Source: JAHJDO01 sp030671985 [NCBI: bacterium]
GTDB lineage: Bacteria > JAHJDO01
Assembly: GCA_030671985.1 (NCBI GenBank)
Contig: DAOVHI010000033.1
Coordinates: 1-11,884, forward strand
Length of the DNA stretch: 11,884 bases
Reading direction: 5' to 3'
In this document: piece by piece, positions 1-11,018 of the stretch
Position numbering within the stretch: position 1 is the stretch's first letter
Layout of the letters: each line of letters begins with the position of its first letter
Position numbers and translations under genes: made by a program
Notes under the pieces: generated by a model
Database searches by the model: none
What the model was told of the DNA's origin: nothing
The model's input: the letters and a program-made list of their open reading frames with translations, nothing else

Positions 1-89
1 CCGGAATAATCAAATTCACAAGCCTGACTTATAATTATAGGCCCTGAACCTATGATCAGAATCTTTTTTATATCAGTTCGTTTCGGCAC
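1..89 (-). CDS. carB: Carbamoyl-phosphate synthase large subunit, N-terminal start only (partial)
   Basis: The large subunit makes carbamoyl phosphate from bicarbonate, ATP and ammonia delivered by CarA, for pyrimidine and arginine synthesis. Only the first 29 codons lie in the window; the gene runs off the left edge. Reading from a GTG at 87-89, the start is [17 protein letters not shown], followed by [13 protein letters not shown], which is the hallmark CarB amino terminus (first ATP-grasp domain, GSGPIIIGQ loop). A GGAG ribosome site with about 7-8 nt spacing precedes the GTG. The start overlaps the 3' end of carA by 17 nt in another frame, a normal carAB coupling. Odd point: the usually invariant Gly of the IIIGQ loop reads Ser (AGT instead of a GGT-type codon), a possible sign of relaxed constraint like that in carA. 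Identity is secure; whether the rest of the gene is intact cannot be seen. Confidence 0.9.
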
Positions 90-1167
90 TTTTTTTCTCC
101 ATCATATCCATAAATCTCTTAAATAGATAACCTGCATCATGCGGACCGGGGAATGCTTCAGGATGAAACTGCACTGAGAATATGGGCAGCTTCTTATGTC
201 TCATTCCCTCTAATGTATCGTCATTAAGATTGATGTGTGTAATTTCTATATCTGCCTTATTCAAAGAATTTATATCCACACAGAAGCAATGGTTTTGAGC
301 GGTAATAGCTACTTTCCCTGTTTCTAAATCCTTAACCGGATGATTCCCGCCATGGTGACCGAACTTAAGCTTATAAGTCTTTCCGCCCAGAGCCAATCCC
401 AATATCTGGTGTCCTAAGCAGATTCCAAATATAGGTAACTTTTCCAGTAGTTTTTTTACTGTTTCTGCCACATACGGTACCCCTGCAGGGTCGCCCGGAC
501 CATTGGAAAGCAATATGCCGTCCGGTTTCATGTTTAGAATTTGTTCCGCTTTTGTTTTTGCAGGAACAACAATCACTTGACACTTACATTCTTCAAGCAT
601 TCGCAATATATTAAATTTTACTCCGCAATCAATAACTACTACCTTATAAAGTTTTGAGTTTCCCTCCCATTCATAAGCTTAGTCAGAAGTTATCCCTTTA
701 ACTAGATCTCAGCCAATCAGGCTCGGGGAATCTTTCTCCTTTTTGATTAATTTTTTCTCAGCCAAATATTCAGTAGAAATAACTGCCCGCATTGCACCCT
801 TTAATCTTATATGTCTTGTAAGCGCTCGTGTATCTATCCCTTCTATTCCAATGATATTATTTTCTTTAAGATATTCACTCAGAGTTTGTTTTGACTGCCA
901 GTTGCTGGCAATTCTGCTGCATTCCTTAACAATAAGACCTTCTATAAAGGGTTTTCTTGATTCTGCATCTTCAGGATTAACGCCGTAATTGCCAATCAAT
1001 GGATAGGTCATGGTAACAACCTGACCTTTGTAGGAAGGATCTGTAAGAATTTCCTGATAGCCCGTCATGCTTGTATTAAAGACTACCTCGCCGCATCTTT
1101 CGCCGCATGCGCCAAAAGATACACCTTCAAAAATTGTCCCGTTTTCTAAAACGACTAATGCTCTCAC
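73..1167 (-). pseudogene. carA: Carbamoyl-phosphate synthase small subunit, interrupted by two in-frame stops
   Basis: CarA hydrolyses glutamine and passes ammonia to CarB. The whole frame from GTG 1167 to the TGA at 73-75 is 364 codons, the usual CarA length, with no frameshift. Codon 153 is TGA (709-711) and codon 163 is TAA (679-681). The N-terminal domain (residues 1-152) is well conserved ([41 protein letters not shown]). The amidotransferase domain follows the second stop (AYEWEG...VVVIDCGVK) and keeps LSNGPGDP, the nucleophile loop [20 protein letters not shown] and the His-Glu of FHPEA. The stops sit where relatives have sense codons (E. coli GMDLAKEVTTAEAY; here G-stop-DLVKGITSD-stop-AY). 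No good restart exists: the first initiator after the stops is TTG 606, inside the domain. A young pseudogene is the simplest reading; sequence error, or a protein made in two pieces, is less likely but possible. Confidence 0.85.
679..711 (-). other. Double nonsense segment inside carA (TGA 709-711, TAA 679-681)
   Basis: Read on the minus strand in the CarA frame this 11-codon segment is stop-D-L-V-K-G-I-T-S-D-stop. The reading frame is unchanged on both sides, so each lesion is a substitution and not an indel. Likely ancestral codons are CGA, GGA or a similar codon at the first site (relatives have GRDLV or GMDL) and AAA or GAA at the second; that ancestry is inferred. Neighbouring genes terminate with TAA and TGA and contain no in-frame stops, which argues against a reassigned code. 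Confidence 0.85.
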
Positions 1168-1219: not shown

Positions 1220-1984
1220 TTAATATGCATACAATTTACCGTATGGACGTGAAGAACCAGGCAGTAGTTTTGTAAAATTAGTTTTTATAATACTGTCAAA
1301 ATCAAGTGAAAATAATTCACAATATTGCCTGAGATATTTTTCTATCAGGCTAAAGTCATCTTTGTTTTTGTTTGGTTCATATACCCTGACTTCTTTTCCC
1401 AGCTGCCATGGTTCTACATTTCCGCGTATAAAAATCTTTCCTCCATGCATACCTGTCCCACAATAGCTTCCTACAATTGGATTTTTGCTTTTTCTGTTTA
1501 ATCCCAATACTATCAATAATCCGCCGGCCATATATTCACCCAGAAAATCTCTGGCGCATCCGCCTATAATGATAACAGGATACATGTTTTTATAGGACTT
1601 CATATGTATTCCCACACGATAGCCTACATTTCCCTTTACAAAAATCTCCCCACCCCTCATGGAATATCCCAGAATATCACCGGCACTTCCATTAATAACA
1701 ATTCTTCCGCTATTCATTGTATTTCCAATTCCATCTTCACCATTACCGGATACATTTATTGAACATCCGTCCATAAAAGCTCCAAGATCATTTCCAGGAA
1801 CTCCATTTATATTGATTTTAGGAGCGTTGTTAACTCCTGTACCAATATAACGCTGACCATTAACATTAGTTAAATGAATATTTTTTATGCCTTCATTTGC
1901 AGCGTCTTTGATGAGCCTATTTAATTCTCTATAATTCAAATCTCTCGCATCTATTCTTTGGAGTTTCGATATATTTCTGTTCAT
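1220..1984 (-). CDS. Glutamate synthase GXGXG-domain subunit (GltB3-type)
   Basis: This 254-residue protein is the stand-alone equivalent of the C-terminal beta-helix of the bacterial glutamate synthase large subunit (GXGXG domain, shared with FwdC/FmdC). Residues about 60-190 carry the repeated glycine pattern: GVPGNDLGAFM, GNGEDGIGNTM, GSAGDILGYSMRGG, GNVGYRVGIHMK, GGCARDFLGEYMAGG, GTGMHGGKIFIRG. The domain is structural; in GOGAT it braces the amidotransferase against the FMN barrel and the ammonia tunnel. The last 65 residues are a non-repeat tail. Its ATG lies in an ATGA overlap (1981-1984) with the stop of the oxidoreductase gene, and AGGA precedes it by about 8 nt, so translation is coupled. 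It is the last gene of the GOGAT set, 52 nt before carA. Family assignment is firm; membership in GOGAT, as opposed to a formylmethanofuran-dehydrogenase-like complex, follows from its neighbours. Confidence 0.9.
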   Translation of the reverse strand: MNRNISKLQRIDARDLNYRELNRLIKDAANEGIKNIHLTNVNGQRYIGTGVNNAPKININGVPGNDLGAFMDGCSINVSGNGEDGIGNTMNSGRIVINGSAGDILGYSMRGGEIFVKGNVGYRVGIHMKSYKNMYPVIIIGGCARDFLGEYMAGGLLIVLGLNRKSKNPIVGSYCGTGMHGGKIFIRGNVEPWQLGKEVRVYEPNKNKDDFSLIEKYLRQYCELFSLDFDSIIKTNFTKLLPGSSRPYGKLYAY

Positions 1985-3252
1985 ACTTCTAATCCTACAT
2001 CTCCGACCAGATGCTTTCTGTATTTCTCAGGTAAGGCAAGGATTCCAAAGTCCTCTTCAAGCAACGTGTCTTTAACATTAGAAATGTCAACTCTGTTTAT
2101 TATCAATCCTGTATATATTCCGGCACGTTCAATATTGCCTACAAAAATACATCCGACAATATGATTGTTTTCCAGTACGATTTTCTTGTATATTAATTCC
2201 TCTTTTTTATGCATCTCCAAAATTTTATATTTATCCTGTTCTAAAGAGGTTTTCCCAATGGATATAGTAGGGATTCCACACAGCTCAACAGAGTTCATAG
2301 CTATGCCGCCTGTATATACCGCATTTCCTCCTGCCATATTCTCTCCGGCAATCCTTCCCTGTTTAAAAGCGTTAGGCCATATTGGTATATTCTTTTCACA
2401 CACATCCCCTGCGGCATAGATATCCTTAACATTCGTTTGCATAGTCTCATCAACTAAAATCCCCTTATTTATACTAATTGAGGTATTCTTAACTAACTGT
2501 ATATTTGGACTTACACCAATTGCTGTGATAACCAGATCTGCAGGAACCTGTTTCCGGGTTTTTAGAGTAACGGACTTCACTTTTTTATTATTATCTTTGC
2601 CTAAAATCTCAACAACTGTATTGTTGCTAAAAATATTACATCCTGTCTTTCTTAATGCATCTTGTATGATCTCTGAAGCTTTGGTGTCAAACGTTGTACT
2701 TAAAATCCTATCTGCAAGCTCAACAATGCTAACCTTTATGCCAAGCTCAATAAGAGCTTCTACTGCTTTAAGCCCGATTAATCCGCCGCCTATAACAATC
2801 GCACGTTTTACAGTATGGTTTTTTATGTAATCTTTGATTGCAACGACGTCGCCGAATGTTGTAAAAGCAAAAACTCCATCCAACCAGCTTCCTTTTATTT
2901 CGGGGATAATAGGGCTTCCGCCTATTGCAATGAGAAGCTTATTAAAAATATTTTTTTCTCCATGAGAAAGACACACTATTCTTTTTTTTGTATCCAGCTT
3001 TTTTGCCATATTCCCAAGAATAAGTTTTACATTGTTTTTGCTATAGAATTTTTTATCTCTGAATGGCATTTCCTCTTTTTTTACTTTTCCTGCTAAAAAG
3101 TATGAAATCAGAGGCCTTGAATAATTAAATGTGTTTTCATCTGATATCACAGTAATACTGCCTGTTTTATCAATTTTTCTTATACCCTCAATACAGGCAG
3201 CTCCAGATGCGGAATTACCTATTATGAGATACTCAGTCTTTAGAGTCTTCAT
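1981..3252 (-). CDS. FAD/NAD(P)-dependent oxidoreductase subunit of glutamate synthase
   Basis: This 423-residue two-dinucleotide-fold flavoprotein belongs to the NADH oxidase / NirB / rubredoxin-reductase group (Pyr_redox_2). The FAD-binding motif is near residues 10-26 (IIGNSASGAA); the second nucleotide motif is VIGGGLIGLKA at 153-163; the third FAD motif IYAAGDVCE is at 278-286. The C-terminal 120 residues match the extra domain of this group. It probably takes electrons from NAD(P)H and passes them to the adjacent iron-sulfur protein and then to the FMN subunit, replacing the usual GltD small subunit. It has no N-terminal iron-sulfur domain of its own, unlike GltD, which fits a separate Fe-S partner. 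The ATG overlaps the upstream Fe-S gene by 20 nt, with GAGG about 9 nt before it, and its stop overlaps the GXGXG gene by 4 nt. The family is certain; the preference for NADH or NADPH cannot be read reliably. Confidence 0.88.
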   Translation of the reverse strand: MKTLKTEYLIIGNSASGAACIEGIRKIDKTGSITVISDENTFNYSRPLISYFLAGKVKKEEMPFRDKKFYSKNNVKLILGNMAKKLDTKKRIVCLSHGEKNIFNKLLIAIGGSPIIPEIKGSWLDGVFAFTTFGDVVAIKDYIKNHTVKRAIVIGGGLIGLKAVEALIELGIKVSIVELADRILSTTFDTKASEIIQDALRKTGCNIFSNNTVVEILGKDNNKKVKSVTLKTRKQVPADLVITAIGVSPNIQLVKNTSISINKGILVDETMQTNVKDIYAAGDVCEKNIPIWPNAFKQGRIAGENMAGGNAVYTGGIAMNSVELCGIPTISIGKTSLEQDKYKILEMHKKEELIYKKIVLENNHIVGCIFVGNIERAGIYTGLIINRVDISNVKDTLLEEDFGILALPEKYRKHLVGDVGLEV

Positions 3253-3676
3253 ATTTTAATGCCTCATTTGGACAGTTTTTAACGCACACAGGCATATCTT
3301 CACCCATACACAGATCACATTTGGAAGCTATCTTCTTATCTGAACTTCTGCTTATAACGCCAAAAGGACATACCATTATACACATCCAGCAGCCAACGCA
3401 CTTATCCTCACTGCATAACACTGCTCCTGTTTCTTTATCCCGATACATTGCTCCTGTCATGCATGCATCCAGACACGGCGCATCCTCACAATGCCTGCAT
3501 TGGAGAGCAAAAGTAACGTATCCTTTTTCCTCTACAAAAATTCTTGGAGCAGGCTTTGAGCATTCTCCCATATATGTCTTTAAAATATTCTTTGTTTTTG
3601 AATGCTGTACAATACAGTGTACTTCACATAACCTGCATCCCATGCAGTACTTTTCGTCAATGCGTATTCTTTTCAT
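3233..3676 (-). CDS. Four-cluster ferredoxin-like electron-transfer subunit (HycB/CooF type)
   Basis: The 147-residue protein has sixteen cysteines in four [4Fe-4S] patterns: C11-C14-C17-C21, C60-C63-C68-C72, C93-C96-C99-C103 and C120-C123-C131-C135. This is the layout of the electron-transfer subunits HycB, CooF and DmsB. Two more cysteines (39 and 88) lie outside the motifs. There is no signal peptide or Tat motif, so it is cytoplasmic. Position makes it the likely wire between the FAD subunit and the FMN core of glutamate synthase. Its ATG follows directly on the TAA of the FMN-subunit gene (no gap), and its 3' end overlaps the oxidoreductase gene by 20 nt. A comparable Fe-S gene sits in the split glutamate synthase cluster that I recall from Thermotoga. 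It could instead use an external ferredoxin or hydrogenase partner, but nothing nearby suggests one. Confidence 0.9.
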   Translation of the reverse strand: MKRIRIDEKYCMGCRLCEVHCIVQHSKTKNILKTYMGECSKPAPRIFVEEKGYVTFALQCRHCEDAPCLDACMTGAMYRDKETGAVLCSEDKCVGCWMCIMVCPFGVISRSSDKKIASKCDLCMGEDMPVCVKNCPNEALKYEDSKD

Positions 3677-5200
3677 TTATTGAGGTTCTCCGGCAGACTT
3701 TATTCCTAATATTTCAAGTTCTCTATCTGAAAGCCCTATACCTCTTAGGTGCGTTCTATTTCCGCATAATGAATCAATTGAATTAATTCCCATGCCTCCA
3801 AGCATATCCTTTATTTCAAGCGACCATGCCCTGATCAGATTTTTTAATCTTTGTACACCTATTTCAGGATTCAACCTTTTTGTAAGATAAGGATCCTGAG
3901 TAGCTATGCCCCAGTTGCACTTACCTGTATAACATTTTTGGCATTGGCTGCATCCTAGAGCTATTAAAGCAGATGTTGCAATATAAACAGCGTCTGCGCC
4001 AAGAGCTATTGCTTTAATAACATCTCCACTTGAGCGGAATCCTCCTGCTGCAATAAGCGAGACCTTGGTTCTGATCCCTTCTTCTCTTAAACGAGCGTCA
4101 ACTGCCGCAATGGCAAATTCTATTGGAATGCCGACATTATCTCTAATTACTTTAGGCGCTGCGCCGGTTCCTCCTCTCATCCCGTCAATTGCGATATAAT
4201 CTGCTCCTGCGCGAGCTACGCCGGAAGCAATCGGCACAACATTATGCACAGCTGCGATTTTAACTCCAACAGGTTTTTCGTAATCAGTAGCCTCTTTTAA
4301 TGCATGGATTAATTGTCTCAGATCTTCTATGGAATATATATCATGATGCGGCGCTGGAGATATTGCATCTGTGCCCTCAGGGATCATTCTGGCTTCGCTT
4401 ACCTCCTTACTGACTTTTTCTCCCGGAAGATGTCCGCCTATTCCTGGCTTTGCGCCCTGACCTATTTTTATCTCTATAGCAGCGCCTGTTCTTAGATACT
4501 CCGGATGCACTCCAAACCTTCCGGAAGCAATCTGAATAATTGTATTTTTGCCGTATTTATAGAGACTCTTGTGAAGTCCGCCCTCTCCCGTATTGTAAAA
4601 GATTCCAAGTTCATGCGATGCTTTTGCAAGCGAGATGCATGTATTAAGACTTACGGAGCCATAAGACATAGCGCTGAACATAATAGGCACTTCAAGTTTT
4701 AGCTGTTTTTCTAACATTGTTTTTAGTTCAATCTTTCCTTTCTTATTATAATCAAGTTCTATTTTGTCAGGTTTTCTTCCTATATATCTTCTTAATTCCA
4801 TAGGCTCTCTCAAAGGATCAATAGATGGATTTGTAACCTGCGAAGCGTTAAGAAGAATGTGATCCCAGTATATCGTATATGGTTTATCGCAGCCCATGCC
4901 TGTTAATATTACACCGCCTGTTTCAGCCTGTTTTGTTATGTCAGAGATTACTGACACAGACCAGTTAGCATTTGGCTTAAAACTGGATTCGTTCTTCTTT
5001 ATTGTTATTGCGTCTGTCGGACATAATGTTTCGCAGAAATGACATCCCACACATTTAGAATTATCACTGGTAACAGTATTTGTATCAGCGTCATAGATAT
5101 GAACATCATTTGAACACATTCTTACGCAAACCTGACAGGCTATACATCTGTCTTTGTCTCTTTCAACAATAAATTCTGTAGGAGTTGGTCTTTTAGCCAT
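3677..5200 (-). CDS. gltB: Glutamate synthase FMN-domain subunit with N-terminal 2[4Fe-4S] ferredoxin domain
   Basis: This is the catalytic core that makes glutamate from 2-oxoglutarate and ammonia released by the amidotransferase subunit. Residues 19-29 (C19, C22, C25, C29) and 50-60 (C50, C53, C56, C60) form a two-cluster ferredoxin domain. Residues about 120-475 are the FMN-binding (beta/alpha)8 barrel, with FSAMSYGSVS, NTGEGG, KIGQGAKPGIGGHLPG and DGMRGGTGAAPK. Residues 417-428 (C417, C420, C423, C428) correspond to the [3Fe-4S] ligand region, followed by GIATQDP. At 507 residues it matches archaeal/Thermotoga-type GltB, which lacks the fused amidotransferase and GXGXG domains; both are encoded by separate genes here. 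The ATG is 1 nt after the stop of the amidotransferase gene, implying coupled translation and fixed stoichiometry. Assignment is secure. Confidence 0.95.
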   Translation of the reverse strand: MAKRPTPTEFIVERDKDRCIACQVCVRMCSNDVHIYDADTNTVTSDNSKCVGCHFCETLCPTDAITIKKNESSFKPNANWSVSVISDITKQAETGGVILTGMGCDKPYTIYWDHILLNASQVTNPSIDPLREPMELRRYIGRKPDKIELDYNKKGKIELKTMLEKQLKLEVPIMFSAMSYGSVSLNTCISLAKASHELGIFYNTGEGGLHKSLYKYGKNTIIQIASGRFGVHPEYLRTGAAIEIKIGQGAKPGIGGHLPGEKVSKEVSEARMIPEGTDAISPAPHHDIYSIEDLRQLIHALKEATDYEKPVGVKIAAVHNVVPIASGVARAGADYIAIDGMRGGTGAAPKVIRDNVGIPIEFAIAAVDARLREEGIRTKVSLIAAGGFRSSGDVIKAIALGADAVYIATSALIALGCSQCQKCYTGKCNWGIATQDPYLTKRLNPEIGVQRLKNLIRAWSLEIKDMLGGMGINSIDSLCGNRTHLRGIGLSDRELEILGIKSAGEPQ

Positions 5201-5201
5201 A

Positions 5202-6290
5202 TTAGTTTTTTAATTTCCCAATAATCGGTTCGCTGGATTTTGAATAATATATTTCTTTTTTGCTCTTGCAAACCTCTCTAATAGCACATTCTTCAGTTGC
5301 CATATAAACGGTATCACCATCTTTTAATGATACAAGAGGACGCAGTTTGACCCTGTCATTAAGGCCCATCATTATGTTGCCGTCTGAGATAATTATTGAA
5401 AAAGGTCCATTAATAAGCGCGCTTGAGTATATTATGCGAAGTGTTTTTAATAATTCTCTTTCTTCGTCATCACCGTTTCTGTCTATTTCCTCCCATAACG
5501 GAGCGTCAATGATCTTGCAGACTATATCAAACGGTAATTTATGTTTGCGCACTAAGAGGTCAAATAAATACAATATTACCTCTGTGTCTGTGAATAATGA
5601 GCATCTATACCCAAAATTTTCAAGATATCTCTTATTTATCCCGTAGGAAGAAATTTCTCCATTATGGACAACTGACCAGTTTAACAGACCAAAAGGATGA
5701 GCTCCTCCCCACCATCCCACGGAATTAGTCGGGAACCTTCCATGCGCAATCCAGATATACGCCCTATATTCCTCAAGCTTATAATATCTGCCTATATCCT
5801 CAGGATAGCCTATACCTTTAAATATACCCATATTTTTTCCGCTGGATGTTACAAACGCGCCTTCAATTTCCGCATTAATCTTCATAACATCATTAACAAC
5901 TATATCTTCCTCTGTTAAGTCATAATACAAATTCTTTACTTTATCTTTTAGCTCAACAAAATAACGCCATAAAAGAGGTCTGTTCTTTATTGACTTATCC
6001 TCTATTGTTGGAATCTCCTCACTTTTAACCACTCTATAATTAGTTTTTAAATATCCCTCTGCATCAGCCATTGCCTTTTTGTCGTCATACATCATATGAA
6101 ACGCAAAATAGTTTTTAAATTTAGGATATATTCCATAAGCTGAAAATCCGCCACCAAGACCATTCGATCTTTCTCTCATTACAGCAATTGAGCGGATAAT
6201 AGCTTCTCCGCTGATTTTCCTGCCGGATTCATTCATAATACCGGCAACACTACATCCGCTGATTAACTTCTCTTGTTCACTATGCCGCAT
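5202..6290 (-). CDS. Class II glutamine amidotransferase subunit of glutamate synthase (GltB1-type)
   Basis: The 362-residue Ntn-type amidotransferase hydrolyses glutamine and supplies ammonia to the FMN subunit. The nucleophile is probably Cys13 (SGCSVAGIMNESG), so a 12-residue propeptide must be removed, as in PurF and GltB. Other class II markers are HGRFPTNS at 183-190, the glutamine-binding HNGEI at 209-213 and FTDTEV at 233-238. Residues about 290-350 form the C-terminal part of the fold (NGPFSIIISDG, YMATEECAIR). The ATG at 6290 is preceded by GGTGA about 5 nt away; an in-frame TGA two codons upstream rules out a longer product. It begins 14 nt after glnA, and its stop is 1 nt before the FMN-subunit gene. 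A PurF-like or asparagine-synthase role is unlikely given this context and the lack of a phosphoribosyltransferase domain. Confidence 0.92.
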   Translation of the reverse strand: MRHSEQEKLISGCSVAGIMNESGRKISGEAIIRSIAVMRERSNGLGGGFSAYGIYPKFKNYFAFHMMYDDKKAMADAEGYLKTNYRVVKSEEIPTIEDKSIKNRPLLWRYFVELKDKVKNLYYDLTEEDIVVNDVMKINAEIEGAFVTSSGKNMGIFKGIGYPEDIGRYYKLEEYRAYIWIAHGRFPTNSVGWWGGAHPFGLLNWSVVHNGEISSYGINKRYLENFGYRCSLFTDTEVILYLFDLLVRKHKLPFDIVCKIIDAPLWEEIDRNGDDEERELLKTLRIIYSSALINGPFSIIISDGNIMMGLNDRVKLRPLVSLKDGDTVYMATEECAIREVCKSKKEIYYSKSSEPIIGKLKN

Positions 6291-6304: not shown

Positions 6305-7636
6305 TTAAGTTATAGAAAGATATTTATCAAGTTCATACTGAGTTACCTGTATTCTGTAATTATCCCACTCTTTTTTCTTAAGTTCGATAAATCTTGGGAA
6401 TATATGATCTCCAAGAGTTCTTTTTACAAGCTCGCTTTCTTCTGTTATAGCTACAGCGTATCCAAGATTATCCGGCAAAGTCTCTATCTCTTTTTCTTTC
6501 CTCTCAGAGTCTGTAAGATGATAAAGATTCTGTTTCATAGGCTCAGGCACTTTGTACCCTTTCTCTATGCCGTCCAAACCGGCTTGAAGCATTGCGGCGA
6601 AGGTAAGATACGGATTGCATGCTGGGTCGCATGCTCTAAACTCACAGCGTGTTGCTTTTTCATCCCCGGGATGATAAAGCGGTACTCGTACAAGAGCGCT
6701 CCTATTTCTACGGCTCCACGCTATGTATACAGGCGCCTCATAGCCGGGAACTAATCTCTTATAAGAATTTGTTGTCTGCGCAAATATTGAACAAATAGCT
6801 CTTGAGTGCTTCAAGAGACCTGCAATATAGCTGTAAGCGACATCTGAAAGATTATCCTCTGAGTTAGAGTCAAAAAATGCGTTTTTATCTCCTTTAAATA
6901 AAGATTGGTGTACATGCATGCCTGAGCCGTTTTCACCAAATATGGGCTTTGGCATAAATGTAGCGTAAACTCCAAATTTGCTGGCAATTTCTTTAACAAC
7001 AATTCTATATGTTAATACGTCGTCAGCCATTTTTAGAGCGTCAGTATAGCGCATATCTATCTCGTGTTGCGATGGGGCAACTTCATGATGAGAATATTCT
7101 ATGTGCATACCCATTTTTTCCAAAGCAAGAACCGTTTCTCGTCTCAAATCGCTTGCAACATCGAGAGTAGTAAGATCAAAATAGCCTCCTTTATCCAGTA
7201 TCTCAGTACCCTGATCATTTTTAAAATAGAAATATTCAAGTTCAGGGCCTAAATAGAAATGATCAAATCCCATCTTATTTGCTCTTTTAAGAGCTTTCTT
7301 TAAAACATAACGAGGGTCTCCTTCATAGGGTGTTCTATCAGGATTAAGTACGTCACAGATCATTCTTGCAACCTTTTTTTCATCAGGTCTCCACGGAAGA
7401 ATAGCAAACGTATTTATATCGGGCATAGCAATCATATCTGATTCCTCAATATCCTGATAACCCGTAATGGACGAACCGTCAAAACCCATGCCGTTCTCCA
7501 TTGCTCCCTTCAGTTCGCTGTCAGTAATCGCAAAACTCTTTACTTGTCCCAGAATATCTGTAAACCATAATCTGATAAACTTAACATCCTGTTCCTTAAC
7601 GATCTTCAACACATCTTCTTTGGTCTTTTTAGCCAT
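6305..7636 (-). CDS. glnA: Glutamine synthetase, type I (alpha-like)
   Basis: GlnA joins ammonia to glutamate using ATP; the GOGAT subunits downstream recycle its product. The protein is 443 residues, the length of GSI-alpha enzymes, and shows no sign of the insertion typical of the adenylylated GSI-beta group. Motifs: the Asp-loop GFDGSSITGY at 51-60, metal ligands in GPELEYF (E132, E134), the HHEVAPSQHEID block at 183-194, NGSGMHVHQS at 236-244, the flexible-loop region near 300 and EFRACDPACNPYL at 332-344. NLYHL at 370-374 aligns with the adenylylation-site region but lacks the beta-type NLYDLPPEE context, so feedback or transcriptional control is more likely than adenylylation. The ATG has a strong AGGAGG site 8 nt upstream. 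It is the first gene of the operon, behind a sigma-54 promoter with two enhancer-like dyads. Confidence 0.97.
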   Translation of the reverse strand: MAKKTKEDVLKIVKEQDVKFIRLWFTDILGQVKSFAITDSELKGAMENGMGFDGSSITGYQDIEESDMIAMPDINTFAILPWRPDEKKVARMICDVLNPDRTPYEGDPRYVLKKALKRANKMGFDHFYLGPELEYFYFKNDQGTEILDKGGYFDLTTLDVASDLRRETVLALEKMGMHIEYSHHEVAPSQHEIDMRYTDALKMADDVLTYRIVVKEIASKFGVYATFMPKPIFGENGSGMHVHQSLFKGDKNAFFDSNSEDNLSDVAYSYIAGLLKHSRAICSIFAQTTNSYKRLVPGYEAPVYIAWSRRNRSALVRVPLYHPGDEKATRCEFRACDPACNPYLTFAAMLQAGLDGIEKGYKVPEPMKQNLYHLTDSERKEKEIETLPDNLGYAVAITEESELVKRTLGDHIFPRFIELKKKEWDNYRIQVTQYELDKYLSIT

Positions 7637-7678: not shown

Positions 7679-7694
7679 AGCAAATAGCATGCCA
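7679..7694 (-). promoter_or_regulatory. Sigma-54 (-24/-12) promoter of the glnA-GOGAT operon
   Basis: The minus strand reads TGGCATGCTATTTGCT, against the consensus TGGCACG-N4-TTGCW. The invariant GG and GC doublets are present and exactly 12 nt apart. Transcription should start about 12 nt below the GC, near 7668, giving a leader of roughly 30 nt that contains AGGAGG. Sigma-54 promoters need an enhancer-binding ATPase; one is encoded immediately upstream, and two dyads sit 80-120 bp upstream of this element as candidate enhancer sites. The near-consensus match, spacing and context together make this call strong. Confidence 0.88.
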
Positions 7695-7758: not shown

Positions 7759-7775
7759 TCCTACAACATTGTATC
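7758..7775. promoter_or_regulatory. Proximal enhancer-like operator A upstream of glnA
   Basis: The plus strand reads ATCCTACA-ACAT-TGTATC, ten of twelve core positions of the dyad CCTACA-N4-TGTAGG found at the activator's own promoter. The left half-site ATCCTACA is complete; the right half departs in its last two core bases. Its centre (7767/7768) is about 100 bp upstream of the predicted sigma-54 start and 30 bp from the centre of operator B, close to three helical turns, as expected for tandem enhancer sites. The protein assignment to the adjacent enhancer-binding protein is inferred. Confidence 0.6.
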
Positions 7776-7789
7776 TTTTTATTAAATAT

Positions 7790-7807
7790 CATACATATTG
7801 GTAGGAT
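7790..7807. promoter_or_regulatory. Distal enhancer-like operator B upstream of glnA
   Basis: The plus strand reads CATACA-TATT-GGTAGGAT. Ten of the twelve core positions match CCTACA-N4-TGTAGG, and the right flank GGAT is complete. Its centre lies about 130 bp upstream of the predicted sigma-54 start. Its better half is the right one, whereas operator A keeps the left half, so the pair may bind cooperatively. It ends 21 bp after the activator's stop codon (downstream on the minus strand). Confidence 0.55.
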
Positions 7808-7828: not shown

Positions 7829-9388
7829 CTATGAATTAGAGCGAAACTGCTTGATATCAATTGCGTGTTTTTTTACCCTGAGTCCCATGAGTCTTTCAGT
7901 AATTCCAAGTATACGGGAAGACTTTGCCATATTTCCCCTTGTGCTGTGAAGCGTATCCAGTATCAGCTCTCTTTCCACATTATCCAGAATAGCCTGCAAT
8001 GTACTGCTCTCTTTTGCATTGAGTTTGTATGGCTGAAGACTTGGCGGCAGATGATACACATGGATTACCTCATCCTTGCTGAGCAGAACTGCGCGTTCAA
8101 TGTAATTTTCAAGCTCTCTTACGTTCCCGGGCCATTTATAATTTACAAGCACATCAAGCGCCTGAGGTGATATGCGTTCTATCGGCTTATTGTGGATTTT
8201 ACTGTATTTTTCTGCGAAAAAATTTGCCAGAAGCATGATATCTGTTTTTCGCTCTCTCAGTGGTGGTATATGGATGGGGAACACGTTTAAGCGATAATAG
8301 AGATCTTCTCTGAATTTGCCCTGCTTAATTAATTGTTCCAGATTTCTGTTCGTAGCCACAATAATTCGCACATTGATTTTAATAGAACTGATTCCACCCA
8401 CCCGCTCAAATTCCTTTTCCTGAAGCACTCTTAAAAGCTTTATTTGAATTGCGGGAGACAGGTCTCCAATTTCATCTAAGAACATGTTTCCATTATTTGC
8501 AAGCTCAAACCTTCCCTTTTTCGTACTGATCGCGCCGGTAAATGCTCCCTTTTCATGTCCAAACAGTTCGCTTTCAATCAGCGTCTCCGGCAATGCTGAA
8601 CAATTGACCTTTATAAATGATTCATTGGCGCGAAGACTATTGTAGTGTATTGCCTGCGCAACAAGTTCCTTGCCTGTACCGCTTTCTCCGCAAATCAGAA
8701 CGGTAGTATCTGTATTTGATATCTGAGCAATAAGGTCATAGACTGTTTGCATGGATTTTGTTTTGCCAATGATATTGGACGGACAAAAACGATCCTTAAG
8801 TTCATTCTGTAGACGAAGGTTTTCTTCAACTAACCGCTTACGCTCTTCTTGAAGAGATTGTCTGAGTCGAACAGCCTGAGCAATCATTGAAGCAATAATA
8901 GAAAGAAGTCTTACATCCTCTTCGGATGATATGGTATTATTGAAGAGCTGGTCAGCGCTTAGCGCACCTATTACTTCATTGCCTAGTTTAATTGGTACAC
9001 AGATGAAAGAAATATCTTTTTTGCGCAGAGATTTCCTGGCACCGGTTTTGTTTAAGAACAGCGGATTTTCGAAGATTCGCGGAACCACTGCAGGTTTTCC
9101 TGTTTGCACTACTTTTCCAGTAATGCCTTCACCGAGTTTATATCTGCCTTTTTCTTTTTGACTTGTTGAAAGCCCATAAGCGGCTTCGATTCCTCTTTCT
9201 TCTGTGTCCCTATTTATAAGAGTAAGAGTTCCACGCGACATGCCCATATGTTCAGCCAGTGATTTTAAGACAGGGTTTACTACATCTCTAAGATCCATGC
9301 TGCGATCAAGTATTCTGCTGATTTCAAAGAGCATGGATAACTCTTCGACCTTACGTCTTGCTTCTGAATGTTTCTTCTTATATTCCAT
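7829..9388 (-). CDS. Sigma-54-dependent transcriptional activator, NifA-like (GAF, AAA+, Fis-type HTH)
   Basis: The 519-residue enhancer-binding protein remodels sigma-54 polymerase using ATP. Residues about 15-175 form a GAF domain ([38 protein letters not shown]). A predicted coiled linker spans 176-200. The AAA+ domain covers about 203-430: Walker A GESGTGKE at 234-241, the sigma-54 contact loop GAFTGA at 281-286, Walker [11 protein letters not shown] at 301-310, and the arginine-finger region [12 protein letters not shown] at 359-370. The Fis-type HTH ([25 protein letters not shown]) is at 484-508, the form seen in NifA-like proteins. There is no response-regulator receiver domain, so it is not NtrC; the GAF domain may sense a metabolite such as 2-oxoglutarate, as in some NifA proteins, but the ligand is unknown. 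AAGGA lies about 7 nt before the ATG. It is transcribed toward glnA, with a 192-nt gap between the two genes. Confidence 0.93.
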
Positions 9389-9410: not shown

Positions 9411-9428
9411 CCTACATAATTGTAGGAT
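9411..9428. promoter_or_regulatory. Operator C: near-perfect dyad over the activator's own -10 box
   Basis: The plus strand reads CCTACA-TAAT-TGTAGG-AT, with perfectly complementary 6-bp arms. Operators A and B upstream of glnA each match ten of the twelve arm positions. It lies 23 bp upstream of the activator's ATG and wholly contains the -10 hexamer TACAAT (9419-9424) of the promoter reading toward that gene. Bound protein here should exclude RNA polymerase, so negative autoregulation is predicted. Confidence 0.65.
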
Positions 9429-9447
9429 ATTTTGTTGAGCAAGTCAA
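9419..9447 (-). promoter_or_regulatory. Sigma-70 promoter of the activator gene
   Basis: The minus strand reads TTGACT (9442-9447), a 17-nt spacer and TACAAT (9419-9424); each hexamer has five of six consensus bases. Transcription would start near 9412, within operator C, about 24 nt before the ATG, leaving a short leader that holds the AAGGA ribosome site. Confidence 0.7.
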
Positions 9448-9456
9448 CATCCAAAT

Positions 9457-9483
9457 AATGAGAACTTCATCTACCTTCTCATT
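9457..9483. repeat. Inverted repeat AATGAGAA-N11-TTCTCATT against the efflux promoter
   Basis: Perfect 8-bp arms at 9457-9464 and 9476-9483 are separated by 11 bp. The right arm overlaps the first two bases of the -35 TTGACA of the promoter reading toward the TolC-family gene; the left arm is 9 bp from the -35 of the divergent activator promoter. The spacing suits an operator better than a terminator, since no T-run follows. No matching regulator gene is in the window. Confidence 0.45.
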
Positions 9484-9509
9484 GACAATATATTTTGTTA
9501 TGTTAATAT
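9482..9509 (+). promoter_or_regulatory. Candidate sigma-70 promoter of the efflux genes
   Basis: TTGACA (9482-9487) is a perfect -35, followed by a 16-nt spacer and TAATAT (9504-9509), a moderate -10. The predicted start near 9515-9517 falls on the GTG taken as the first codon of the TolC-family gene, so either the message is leaderless or translation begins further in. Confidence 0.5.
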
Positions 9510-9515
9510 TTAGTT

Positions 9516-11018
9516 GTGCTCAATAAATCTCATAATCAATTTCCTGATAAACTTTCGTCGTTGCAAAAAATCACGGATAAAATTTTTACCATAGGTTTTT
9601 TATTAATTTTTGCCTGTGCAAGTTTTGTTTTTGCTCAAGAAGAACACAGGACTTTTAAGTTATCGTTGGATGAAGTAACGAACATTGCATTAGAAAACAA
9701 CCTCGATATCCAGATGGCTAAATATGATGTTTTTATTTCGGAAACATCTCTCGATACAGCAAAATCAATATTTGATGTTATTCTAGACGCAAAAATTAAT
9801 TATCAGGACGCCAAGTCATCTTCGCACGAAACAAAAACTGTCGATAATGATTACAACGTAGGAATATCTAAGAAATTTTCTTCAGGCACAACCATTGAAG
9901 CTGACATGGATAATAACAAAAATTGGACTAATTCAAGTTCAACAAGCTCTGCCTTAAATCATAATTCATCTTTAAGCTTATCTTTAACACAAGCATTAGG
10001 TAAAAATTTCTTTGGAATTAAAGATAAAAGCAATATTGATATTACAAAAATAAACATAGAAAATTCCGGTTATACTTCTTTAGAAAAGATAGAAACTATT
10101 ATTAGTACAGTTGAAAAAGCTTATTGGGATTTAGTTTTACAACTTAAAAAAGTAGAAATTCAAAAGGATATGGTTGATCAAGCTAAGCGGCTTTATGATT
10201 TGCATCAGAAAAAATTGGAAGATGGATTAGTCGAGATGCCTGAAGCTATCGCATCGGAAGCTAATTATAAAGATAGAATCAACAATCTTACTTTGGAAGA
10301 AAACTCTGTTAAAACTAAAGAAAATCTTTTAAAGCTATTATTAAATATTAAGGAAGATAATATAACAATCAAACCTATTGATGGCTATTATTTAAATATA
10401 ATTGACCAAGATTTTACAGAATCTTTAAAAATTGCTTTCGATAATAGGAGAGATTATTTAAGGGTAAAGAATACAATCATAGCTAAAGATATTAGTTTGG
10501 TTATTGAAAAAAACAACAATTTACCGACTATTAATTTAACGGCTTCATTAGCGAAAAACGGTTTGGGAGATCATTTCGAACAATCTGTTACAAACATTGT
10601 GACAGAAGATAATACAAATTATTCTGTTGGTTTAATATTTAGTTTGCCATTAGGAAACAGGGATGCAAAGGCAAAGTTAAAAAAAGCTGAATATGAAAAG
10701 ATAAAAGCATTAGTGGAGCTGAAACTTATAGAAAGAAAAATTACGATTGAGATTATTGATCAGATCCGTGATTGTAATATTTATAAGGAATTCGCGTTAA
10801 ATAGCATTGATATCGCAGAGTTGCAAGCACAAAAGCTGAAAGAAGAAGAGAAACGTTTTAATTTAGGCAGATCGAATACAGATACATTAATTCGTTACCA
10901 AGAAGATGTTATATATGCGAAACAATCGTCAGTTTCGGCTCAATATCAATTTTATAGCGCGCTTGTTGATTTAGAACTTAAAAAGGGCACATTGTTAGCA
11001 AATTACAATTTGAGGTAA
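9516..11018 (+). CDS. TolC-family outer-membrane efflux channel
   Basis: The 500-residue protein is an outer-membrane efflux channel subunit: a trimeric barrel plus periplasmic helical tunnel that carries pump substrates out. Residues 22-40 form a signal-peptide core (FTIGFLLIFACASFVFA) with likely cleavage after Ala40. Cys34 lies in a poor lipobox, so a lipoprotein is unlikely. The mature part shows the two outer-membrane-efflux repeats: FKLSLDEVTNIALENNLDIQ early in the first, and TESLKIAFDNRRDYLRVKNT opening the second near residue 305. Long helices are rich in Lys, Glu and Asn. The start is uncertain: GTG 9516 gives a long n-region and has no Shine-Dalgarno; TTG 9561 would give a standard 25-residue signal peptide but also lacks one. 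The gene is visibly richer in A+T than the RND gene 4 nt downstream. The substrate cannot be inferred. Confidence 0.88.
   Translation: MLNKSHNQFPDKLSSLQKITDKIFTIGFLLIFACASFVFAQEEHRTFKLSLDEVTNIALENNLDIQMAKYDVFISETSLDTAKSIFDVILDAKINYQDAKSSSHETKTVDNDYNVGISKKFSSGTTIEADMDNNKNWTNSSSTSSALNHNSSLSLSLTQALGKNFFGIKDKSNIDITKINIENSGYTSLEKIETIISTVEKAYWDLVLQLKKVEIQKDMVDQAKRLYDLHQKKLEDGLVEMPEAIASEANYKDRINNLTLEENSVKTKENLLKLLLNIKEDNITIKPIDGYYLNIIDQDFTESLKIAFDNRRDYLRVKNTIIAKDISLVIEKNNNLPTINLTASLAKNGLGDHFEQSVTNIVTEDNTNYSVGLIFSLPLGNRDAKAKLKKAEYEKIKALVELKLIERKITIEIIDQIRDCNIYKEFALNSIDIAELQAQKLKEEEKRFNLGRSNTDTLIRYQEDVIYAKQSSVSAQYQFYSALVDLELKKGTLLANYNLR
11012..11015 (+). promoter_or_regulatory. Ribosome binding site of the RND gene (GAGG)
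   Basis: GAGG at the end of the channel gene, spanning its last codons, lies 7 nt before the GTG at 11023. It favours this GTG over the in-frame ATGs at 11029 and 11032, which would be too far away, and shows that translation is coupled to the upstream gene. Confidence 0.65.

What the first reader, a model, noticed from the sequence alone, without database searches (positions are those of the whole stretch)
9411..9447. Activator gene probably represses itself: same dyad covers its own -10 box
The best copy of the dyad (CCTACA-TAAT-TGTAGG) wholly contains the -10 hexamer of a good sigma-70 promoter (TTGACT-17-TACAAT). Only three full copies are recognisable in the window, all in the two promoter regions that one local regulator would control. 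Activation at glnA and repression at its own gene by one protein makes a compact feedback circuit.
Basis: partly seen in the sequence, partly recalled or inferred. Interest (0 to 1): 0.6.

Follow-up and report, generated by a model that had tools for sequence, protein, structure and literature searches.

The report
Nitrogen regulator likely represses itself
A nitrogen-control protein seems to use one short DNA mark twice in front of the ammonium-assimilation genes it switches on and once on top of its own promoter, where it would turn itself down; such feedback is known from other bacteria, but here it belongs to a little-studied branch of regulators.

Summary
The dyad is real: CCTACA-TAAT-TGTAGG (9411-9426) contains the -10 of TTGACT-17-TACAAT before the activator gene, and is the only perfect copy in the 1.25 Mb genome. 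The two other copies (7760, 7790) have two mismatches each; site counts alone are at chance level. Arrangement and conservation carry the case. Those two lie exactly 30 bp apart upstream of a -24/-12 promoter before glnA. In a sister species all three sites persist although the controlled gene is gdhA; in two congeners the 16-mer at the activator promoter is identical. At 21 more distant activator loci the core ACA-N4-TGT occurs 26 times against 2.6 expected; 47 loci of other activators give 4 against 4.3. Pairs 29-30 bp apart recur. The core TAC-N6-GTA is the published AnfA consensus. The sites therefore very probably belong to this NifA-family activator. Self-repression is inferred from the overlap with -10 and is untested. 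The logic matches NtrC at glnAp1/glnLp. I call it a new variant of a known kind: a one-component NifA-family regulator of ammonium assimilation with an AnfA-like operator.

The parts
9411..9426 (.). Perfect dyad CCTACA-TAAT-TGTAGG, proposed self-operator
   Evidence: 16 of 16 identical in G003 and G004
9442..9447 (-). -35 TTGACT of the activator promoter
   Evidence: TTGATT in G003 and G004
9419..9424 (-). -10 TACAAT, inside the dyad
   Evidence: same in G003 and G004
7829..9388 (-). GAF / sigma-54 AAA+ / Fis-HTH activator, 519 aa, NifA family
7760..7775 (.). Imperfect dyad CCTACAACATTGTATC, enhancer site
7790..7805 (.). Imperfect dyad CATACATATTGGTAGG, enhancer site, 30 bp from the first
7679..7694 (-). 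-24/-12 promoter TGGCATGCTATTTGCT before glnA
   Evidence: TGGCATATTATTTGCT before gdhA in G003
6305..7636 (-). glnA, type I glutamine synthetase, proposed target
1220..6290 (-). Glutamate synthase parts (amidotransferase 5202-6290, synthase 3677-5200), ferredoxin-like 3233-3676, FAD oxidoreductase 1981-3252 and a 254-aa protein 1220-1984 that looks like the glutamate synthase C-terminal part; presumed same operon
   Evidence: ORFs; Pfam for three of the five; the ferredoxin-like and 254-aa proteins named by eye

Best explanation
A one-component GAF-domain activator of the NifA family binds dyads CCTACA-N4-TGTAGG (core TAC-N6-GTA) through its Fis-type HTH. Two imperfect dyads 30 bp apart, with 65 and 95 bp between them and the -24/-12 promoter, form the enhancer from which it activates glnA and the glutamate synthase genes with sigma-54. 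One perfect dyad covers the -10 of its own sigma-70 promoter; when occupied it would block RNA polymerase and lower its own synthesis. As the self-site is the better match it should fill first or at the same level and cap the amount of activator. Shown by computation: the sites, their conservation, pairing and association with the activator gene, and the presence of rpoN. Inferred: binding, activation, repression, and the input signal (2-oxoglutarate or PII, recalled from NifA).
For: Self-site 16 of 16 identical in G000, G003 and G004 with -35/17/-10 kept, while the neighbour on the other side differs; fourfold-degenerate sites of the activator are 66% identical between G000 and G003, 132 of 201. 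Target promoter: both dyads unchanged in their arms between G000 and G003, the gap to the -24/-12 is 66 bp longer and the gene is gdhA instead of glnA. Exact TAC-N6-GTA pairs at 30 bp: 4 in 8 genomes, 3 of them beside this activator gene. 21 distant activator loci: ACA-N4-TGT 26 against 2.6, TAC-N6-GTA 8 against 1.1; 47 other activator loci: 4 against 4.3 and 0 against 1.8. Pair distances peak at 29-30 bp: 11 pairs, 0.2 expected, in 25 loci including the window. Relatives' targets by Pfam: amtB in three loci, glnA, glnD. A dyad overlaps a candidate sigma-70 promoter of the activator also in G044 and two Spirochaetota. rpoN over cut-off in 5 of 5 genomes of the genus.
Against: No binding or expression data. 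G018 has no dyad upstream of the activator. In G044 no clear site was found on the glnK side (p 0.265), and in G018 the site downstream of the activator has no -24/-12 found near it. G098 has a -24/-12 before the activator itself, so self-repression is not general in the family. 10 of 21 distant loci have no exact ACA-N4-TGT, among them the locus beside nifH (L049). Pairs with up to one mismatch are fewer than the control pattern in 6 of 8 genomes. The promoters outside the genus are weak or tied matches.
Confidence: 0.72

Rival explanations
1. The activator binds the self-site but does not repress: its gene has a sigma-54 promoter there, or the dyad is only a remote enhancer.
For: A weak -24/-12-like string lies at 9438-9453 (8 of 12). 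G098 has a -24/-12 before its activator.
Against: The string is not kept in G003 or G004, and the dyad would lie at or beyond its start point. The centre of the self-site, part of the -10, is invariant in three species while the centre of an enhancer dyad changed.
Confidence: 0.12
2. Another DNA-binding protein owns the dyad; the activator is only its neighbour.
For: The genome encodes at least one further complete sigma-54 activator and a fragment; binding was not tested.
Against: The core is enriched beside relatives of this activator in many groups and not beside 47 other activators; perfect dyads in 8 genomes number three, all before this gene.
Confidence: 0.07
3. The dyad regulates the divergent outer-membrane efflux gene (9516-11018).
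For: It lies in the shared intergenic region, upstream of a candidate promoter at 9482-9509.
Against: The dyad is kept where the other neighbour is different; no -24/-12 directed at the efflux gene was found between dyad and gene.
Confidence: 0.05
4. It is a chance palindrome, or an RNA hairpin or terminator.
For: Approximate copies occur at chance frequency; the terminator scan lists it on both strands.
Against: Identical in three species; neither adjacent gene ends there; the RNA strand folds no better than shuffles (z -0.35), and with a start near 9412 most of the dyad would not be transcribed.
Confidence: 0.04

Closest known systems
NtrC of Escherichia coli at glnAp2, glnAp1 and glnLp
   Same: One sigma-54 activator with two high-affinity enhancer sites at glnA and negative feedback on its own expression through glnAp1 and glnLp (passages of PMC3870243).
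   Different: NtrC is a phosphorylated response regulator encoded in the glnA operon; here a GAF one-component protein has its own promoter and another operator.
AnfA of Rhodobacter capsulatus and VnfA of Azotobacter vinelandii
   Same: GAF-type activators; AnfA consensus TAC-N6-GTA, two sites at anfH; VnfA GTAC-N6-GTAC, mostly two motifs per promoter (passages of PMC7294313 and PMC9542535).
   Different: They control alternative nitrogenases; their GAF domains carry conserved cysteine motifs. Here targets are ammonium-assimilation genes. No AnfA or VnfA sequence was compared.
NifA of Pseudomonadota
   Same: Curated model TIGR01817 reached, 543.1 against 528.85 bits.
   Different: Falls outside the set holding annotated NifA in an unrooted tree; TGT-N10-ACA not enriched; no nifH over cut-off in the own genome.
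EbpA of Leptospira interrogans
   Same: GAF-type sigma-54 activator of amtB in a spirochaete (passages of a review, PMC12655853).
   Different: Two GAF domains; sequence and operator not compared.
DVUA0143-type regulator of Nitratidesulfovibrio vulgaris
   Same: 42% identity; GCTACATTTTTGTAGT upstream of nifH; a motif was predicted for it in print (passages of PMC4641369), its letters not seen.
   Different: Predicted to control nitrogenase; it groups with the NifA side of the tree.

Membership tests
Sigma-54 enhancer-binding proteins | Sigma-54 AAA+ domain with GAFTGA and Fis-type HTH | tested here: met
   PF00158 3.8e-73 and PF02954 4.5e-08; GAFTGA in the alignment
NifA | Reaches the curated NifA model | tested here: met
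   TIGR01817 543.1 bits, cut-off 528.85
NifA | Operator TGT-N10-ACA at targets | tested here: not met
   None in the two promoter regions; at chance in 21 relatives, 4 against 2.6
NifA | Nitrogenase genes in the genome | tested here: not met
   nifH over cut-off in 1 of 9 genomes, not in the own one; drafts
AnfA/VnfA | Paired TAC-N6-GTA operators at a -24/-12 promoter | tested here: met
   consensus from PMC7294313
AnfA/VnfA | Cysteine motif in the GAF domain | tested here: inconclusive
   One cysteine seen by eye in the GAF part of the query; no AnfA or VnfA sequence compared
AnfA/VnfA | Controls alternative nitrogenase | not tested
   anf and vnf genes were not searched for; neighbours are glnA and glutamate synthase
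Negatively autoregulated activator (NtrC-like logic) | Own operator overlaps own sigma-70 promoter | tested here: met
Negatively autoregulated activator (NtrC-like logic) | Own expression rises when the activator is lost | not testable with these tools
   No expression data

The most novel reading that the evidence does not exclude
A widespread branch of the NifA family acts as a general ammonium-assimilation switch, mostly in bacteria without nitrogenase. It has its own operator code (ACA-N4-TGT core, tandem pairs at 29-30 bp, CCTAC arms with the helix ERxMGLR) and, in part of the branch, a self-operator. It behaves as a cassette whose target can be exchanged: glnA with glutamate synthase, gdhA, amtB. 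Control of nif genes may be a later use of such a regulator.
Probability: 0.45. Interest if true: 0.55.

Novelty: new variant of a known kind. Interest (0 to 1): 0.42.

Why it matters
It gives a readable operator for a branch that curated models label 'nif-specific activator' although nifH was found over cut-off in only 1 of 9 genomes searched, so regulons could be predicted and annotation corrected. One enhancer and self-operator cassette stands before glnA in one species and gdhA in its sister, a natural case of target exchange that can be tested.

Tried and rejected
Counts of approximate sites: at chance, not used. Further targets in the own genome: of the 23 two-mismatch sites outside the window I inspected nine (L002-L010); eight lie in open frames of 564 bp or more, and none has a -24/-12 within 300 bp; fourteen were not inspected. 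Exact CCTAC-N6-GTAGG sites G003 C54 and G018 C44 and C62 were inspected and fall in or at coding regions; G018 C83 was not inspected. G118 L172, an exact 30-bp pair before a gene that looks like an oligopeptide-binding protein, has no -24/-12 near. L177, in the Treponema genome, a one-mismatch pair near a -24/-12 and an ABC transporter ATPase (named by eye), may be a second target. Hairpin, terminator and a sigma-54 promoter for the activator were rejected.

Mistakes of mine: the -24/-12 scan had a wrong offset and found nothing; repeated. The tree held a wrongly cut row (L132) and a frameshifted row (L061); rebuilt with L132 corrected and without L061, L063, L186 and four other activators. 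L061 stayed among the 21 loci despite its frameshifts. One search tested 30 bp only, not 29. The label 'glt' given to L052 in the trees has no support: Pfam found no family.

Selection: the relatives were chosen by hand. The 21 are rows at about 44-71% identity; other rows of about 45% and less (L022-L040) were left out. The window, G003 and two Spirochaetota were left out because their sites made the matrix. Of the 80 loci, 47 were used as controls, 10 among the 21, two as matrix sources, and 21 in neither.

Literature: no paper on such an operator at ammonium-assimilation genes was seen in the listings; only open-licence PMC papers are held. Other self-repressing activators such as PspF and XylR are recalled, not looked up.

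Full report
What is there. On the minus strand the window carries a 519-aa GAF / sigma-54 AAA+ / Fis-HTH regulator (7829-9388), then glnA (6305-7636) and glutamate synthase genes. The best curated family of the regulator is NifA, 543.1 bits against a cut-off of 528.85. The dyad CCTACATAATTGTAGG at 9411-9426 holds the -10 of TTGACT-17-TACAAT before the regulator gene. A -24/-12 promoter, TGGCATGCTATTTGCT, lies at 7679-7694 before glnA; two imperfect dyads, 7760-7775 and 7790-7805, lie upstream of it, 30 bp apart. rpoN is over its cut-off in all five genomes of the genus.

More than chance? Counts do not show it. Matches with up to three mismatches in the window equal the shuffles; matches with up to two in the genome are fewer than for the control pattern, 26 against 46; sigma-70 patterns are as frequent as in shuffles. 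The perfect dyad is unique in the genome. In the own genome and seven others, about 21 Mb, the perfect pattern occurs three times, in G000, G003 and G004, each time before this regulator gene; about 1.3 would be expected naively, so the place is telling, not the number. Exact TAC-N6-GTA pairs at 30 bp occur four times in eight genomes: before glnA here, before gdhA in G003, before amtB in a Treponema (G117), and once elsewhere in G118. Counting pairs with up to one mismatch, six of the eight genomes have fewer than the control pattern and two, G117 and G118, have more.

Sister species. Five genomes of the phylum are held, all of one genus. G003 has the whole regulator at 94% identity. G004 has its first codons at a contig end, read by eye. 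G001 (62% complete) and G002 have no match at E 1e-125. The regulator promoters of G000, G003 and G004 share all 16 bases of the dyad, the -10 and a 17-bp spacer; the -35 is TTGACT or TTGATT. The gene on the other side differs: an outer-membrane efflux protein, a gene that I read by eye as ruvB, small unnamed ORFs. Fourfold-degenerate sites of the regulator are 66% identical between G000 and G003, 132 of 201. At the second promoter the arms of both dyads are unchanged, with three substitutions in the block outside the arms; the gap to the -24/-12 is 66 bp longer, the -24/-12 is kept, and the gene is a glutamate dehydrogenase instead of glnA. No glnA of this type was found in G003 at E 1e-40. 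Sites kept while distance and gene change is what an enhancer would show.

Other phyla. Relatives sit beside nitrogen genes. G044 (71%) lies beside genes that I read as glnK and amtB, with a glnA further on. G018 (71%) lies beside a gene without Pfam family and one read as amtB. A Spirochaetaceae bacterium (64%) and a Treponema (51%) lie beside amtB. In the Treponema one dyad precedes the regulator, and a pair at 30 bp precedes a -24/-12 and amtB. The Spirochaetaceae locus is the same with a weak second member. A dyad overlaps a candidate sigma-70 promoter of the regulator in six of seven close loci (G000, G003, G004, G044 and the two Spirochaetota; in the Treponema by one to four bases), not in G018. 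Outside the genus these promoters are weak or tied matches. Against the reading: no clear site at the glnK side of G044 and no -24/-12 near the G018 site.

Family-wide test. In the flanks of 25 loci, the window included, distances between core-like sites peak at 29 and 30 bp, 4 and 7 pairs, about 0.1 expected each. Leaving out the window, G003 and the two Spirochaetota, 21 loci hold 26 exact ACA-N4-TGT against 2.6 expected and 8 TAC-N6-GTA against 1.1. The NifA motif TGT-N10-ACA (4 against 2.6) and the spacer controls are at chance. 47 loci of other sigma-54 activators show 4 against 4.3. Eleven of the 21 have the exact core and ten do not. Sites with a CCTAC arm were listed in 6 of 7 loci with the helix ERxMGLR and in none of 17 others; the six are also close relatives, so this is suggestive only.

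What it works like and what it is. The logic is that of NtrC at glnAp2, glnAp1 and glnLp (passages of PMC3870243). The operator core is the AnfA consensus (passages of PMC7294313), and VnfA is similar with paired sites (passages of PMC9542535). By curated model it is a NifA, but in the tree, rooted for drawing only, it falls outside the set with annotated NifA, TGT-N10-ACA is not enriched, and nifH is over cut-off only in the Treponema, 1 of 9 genomes. I describe it as a NifA-family ammonium-assimilation activator with an AnfA-like operator, not as NifA proper.

Inferred, not shown: binding, activation, repression and the input signal. That the self-site fills first and caps the regulator is a prediction.

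Noticed in passing
window 73-1167, minus strand: carA reads in one frame with two in-frame stops about ten codons apart near its middle: decayed gene or assembly error.
   Followed up: partly
L124:165-1442 (G003): The same activator and enhancer pair stand before a glutamate dehydrogenase gene instead of glnA.
   Followed up: yes
L177:1422-1542 (Treponema genome G117): One-mismatch 30-bp pair and a -24/-12 promoter before a gene that looks like an ABC transporter ATPase: candidate second target.
   Followed up: partly
L187:14267-15089 (Nitratidesulfovibrio vulgaris plasmid): GCTACATTTTTGTAGT upstream of nifH, with a weaker neighbour 18 bp away and a -24/-12 on the nifH side.
   Followed up: partly
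window 9482-9509: Candidate divergent promoter TTGACA-16-TAATAT for the efflux gene; parts of this stretch are conserved in G003 and G004 although the genes differ.
   Followed up: no
window 1220-6290: Glutamate synthase split into separate proteins with a ferredoxin-like protein and an FAD oxidoreductase; I recall this layout as archaeal-type.
   Followed up: no
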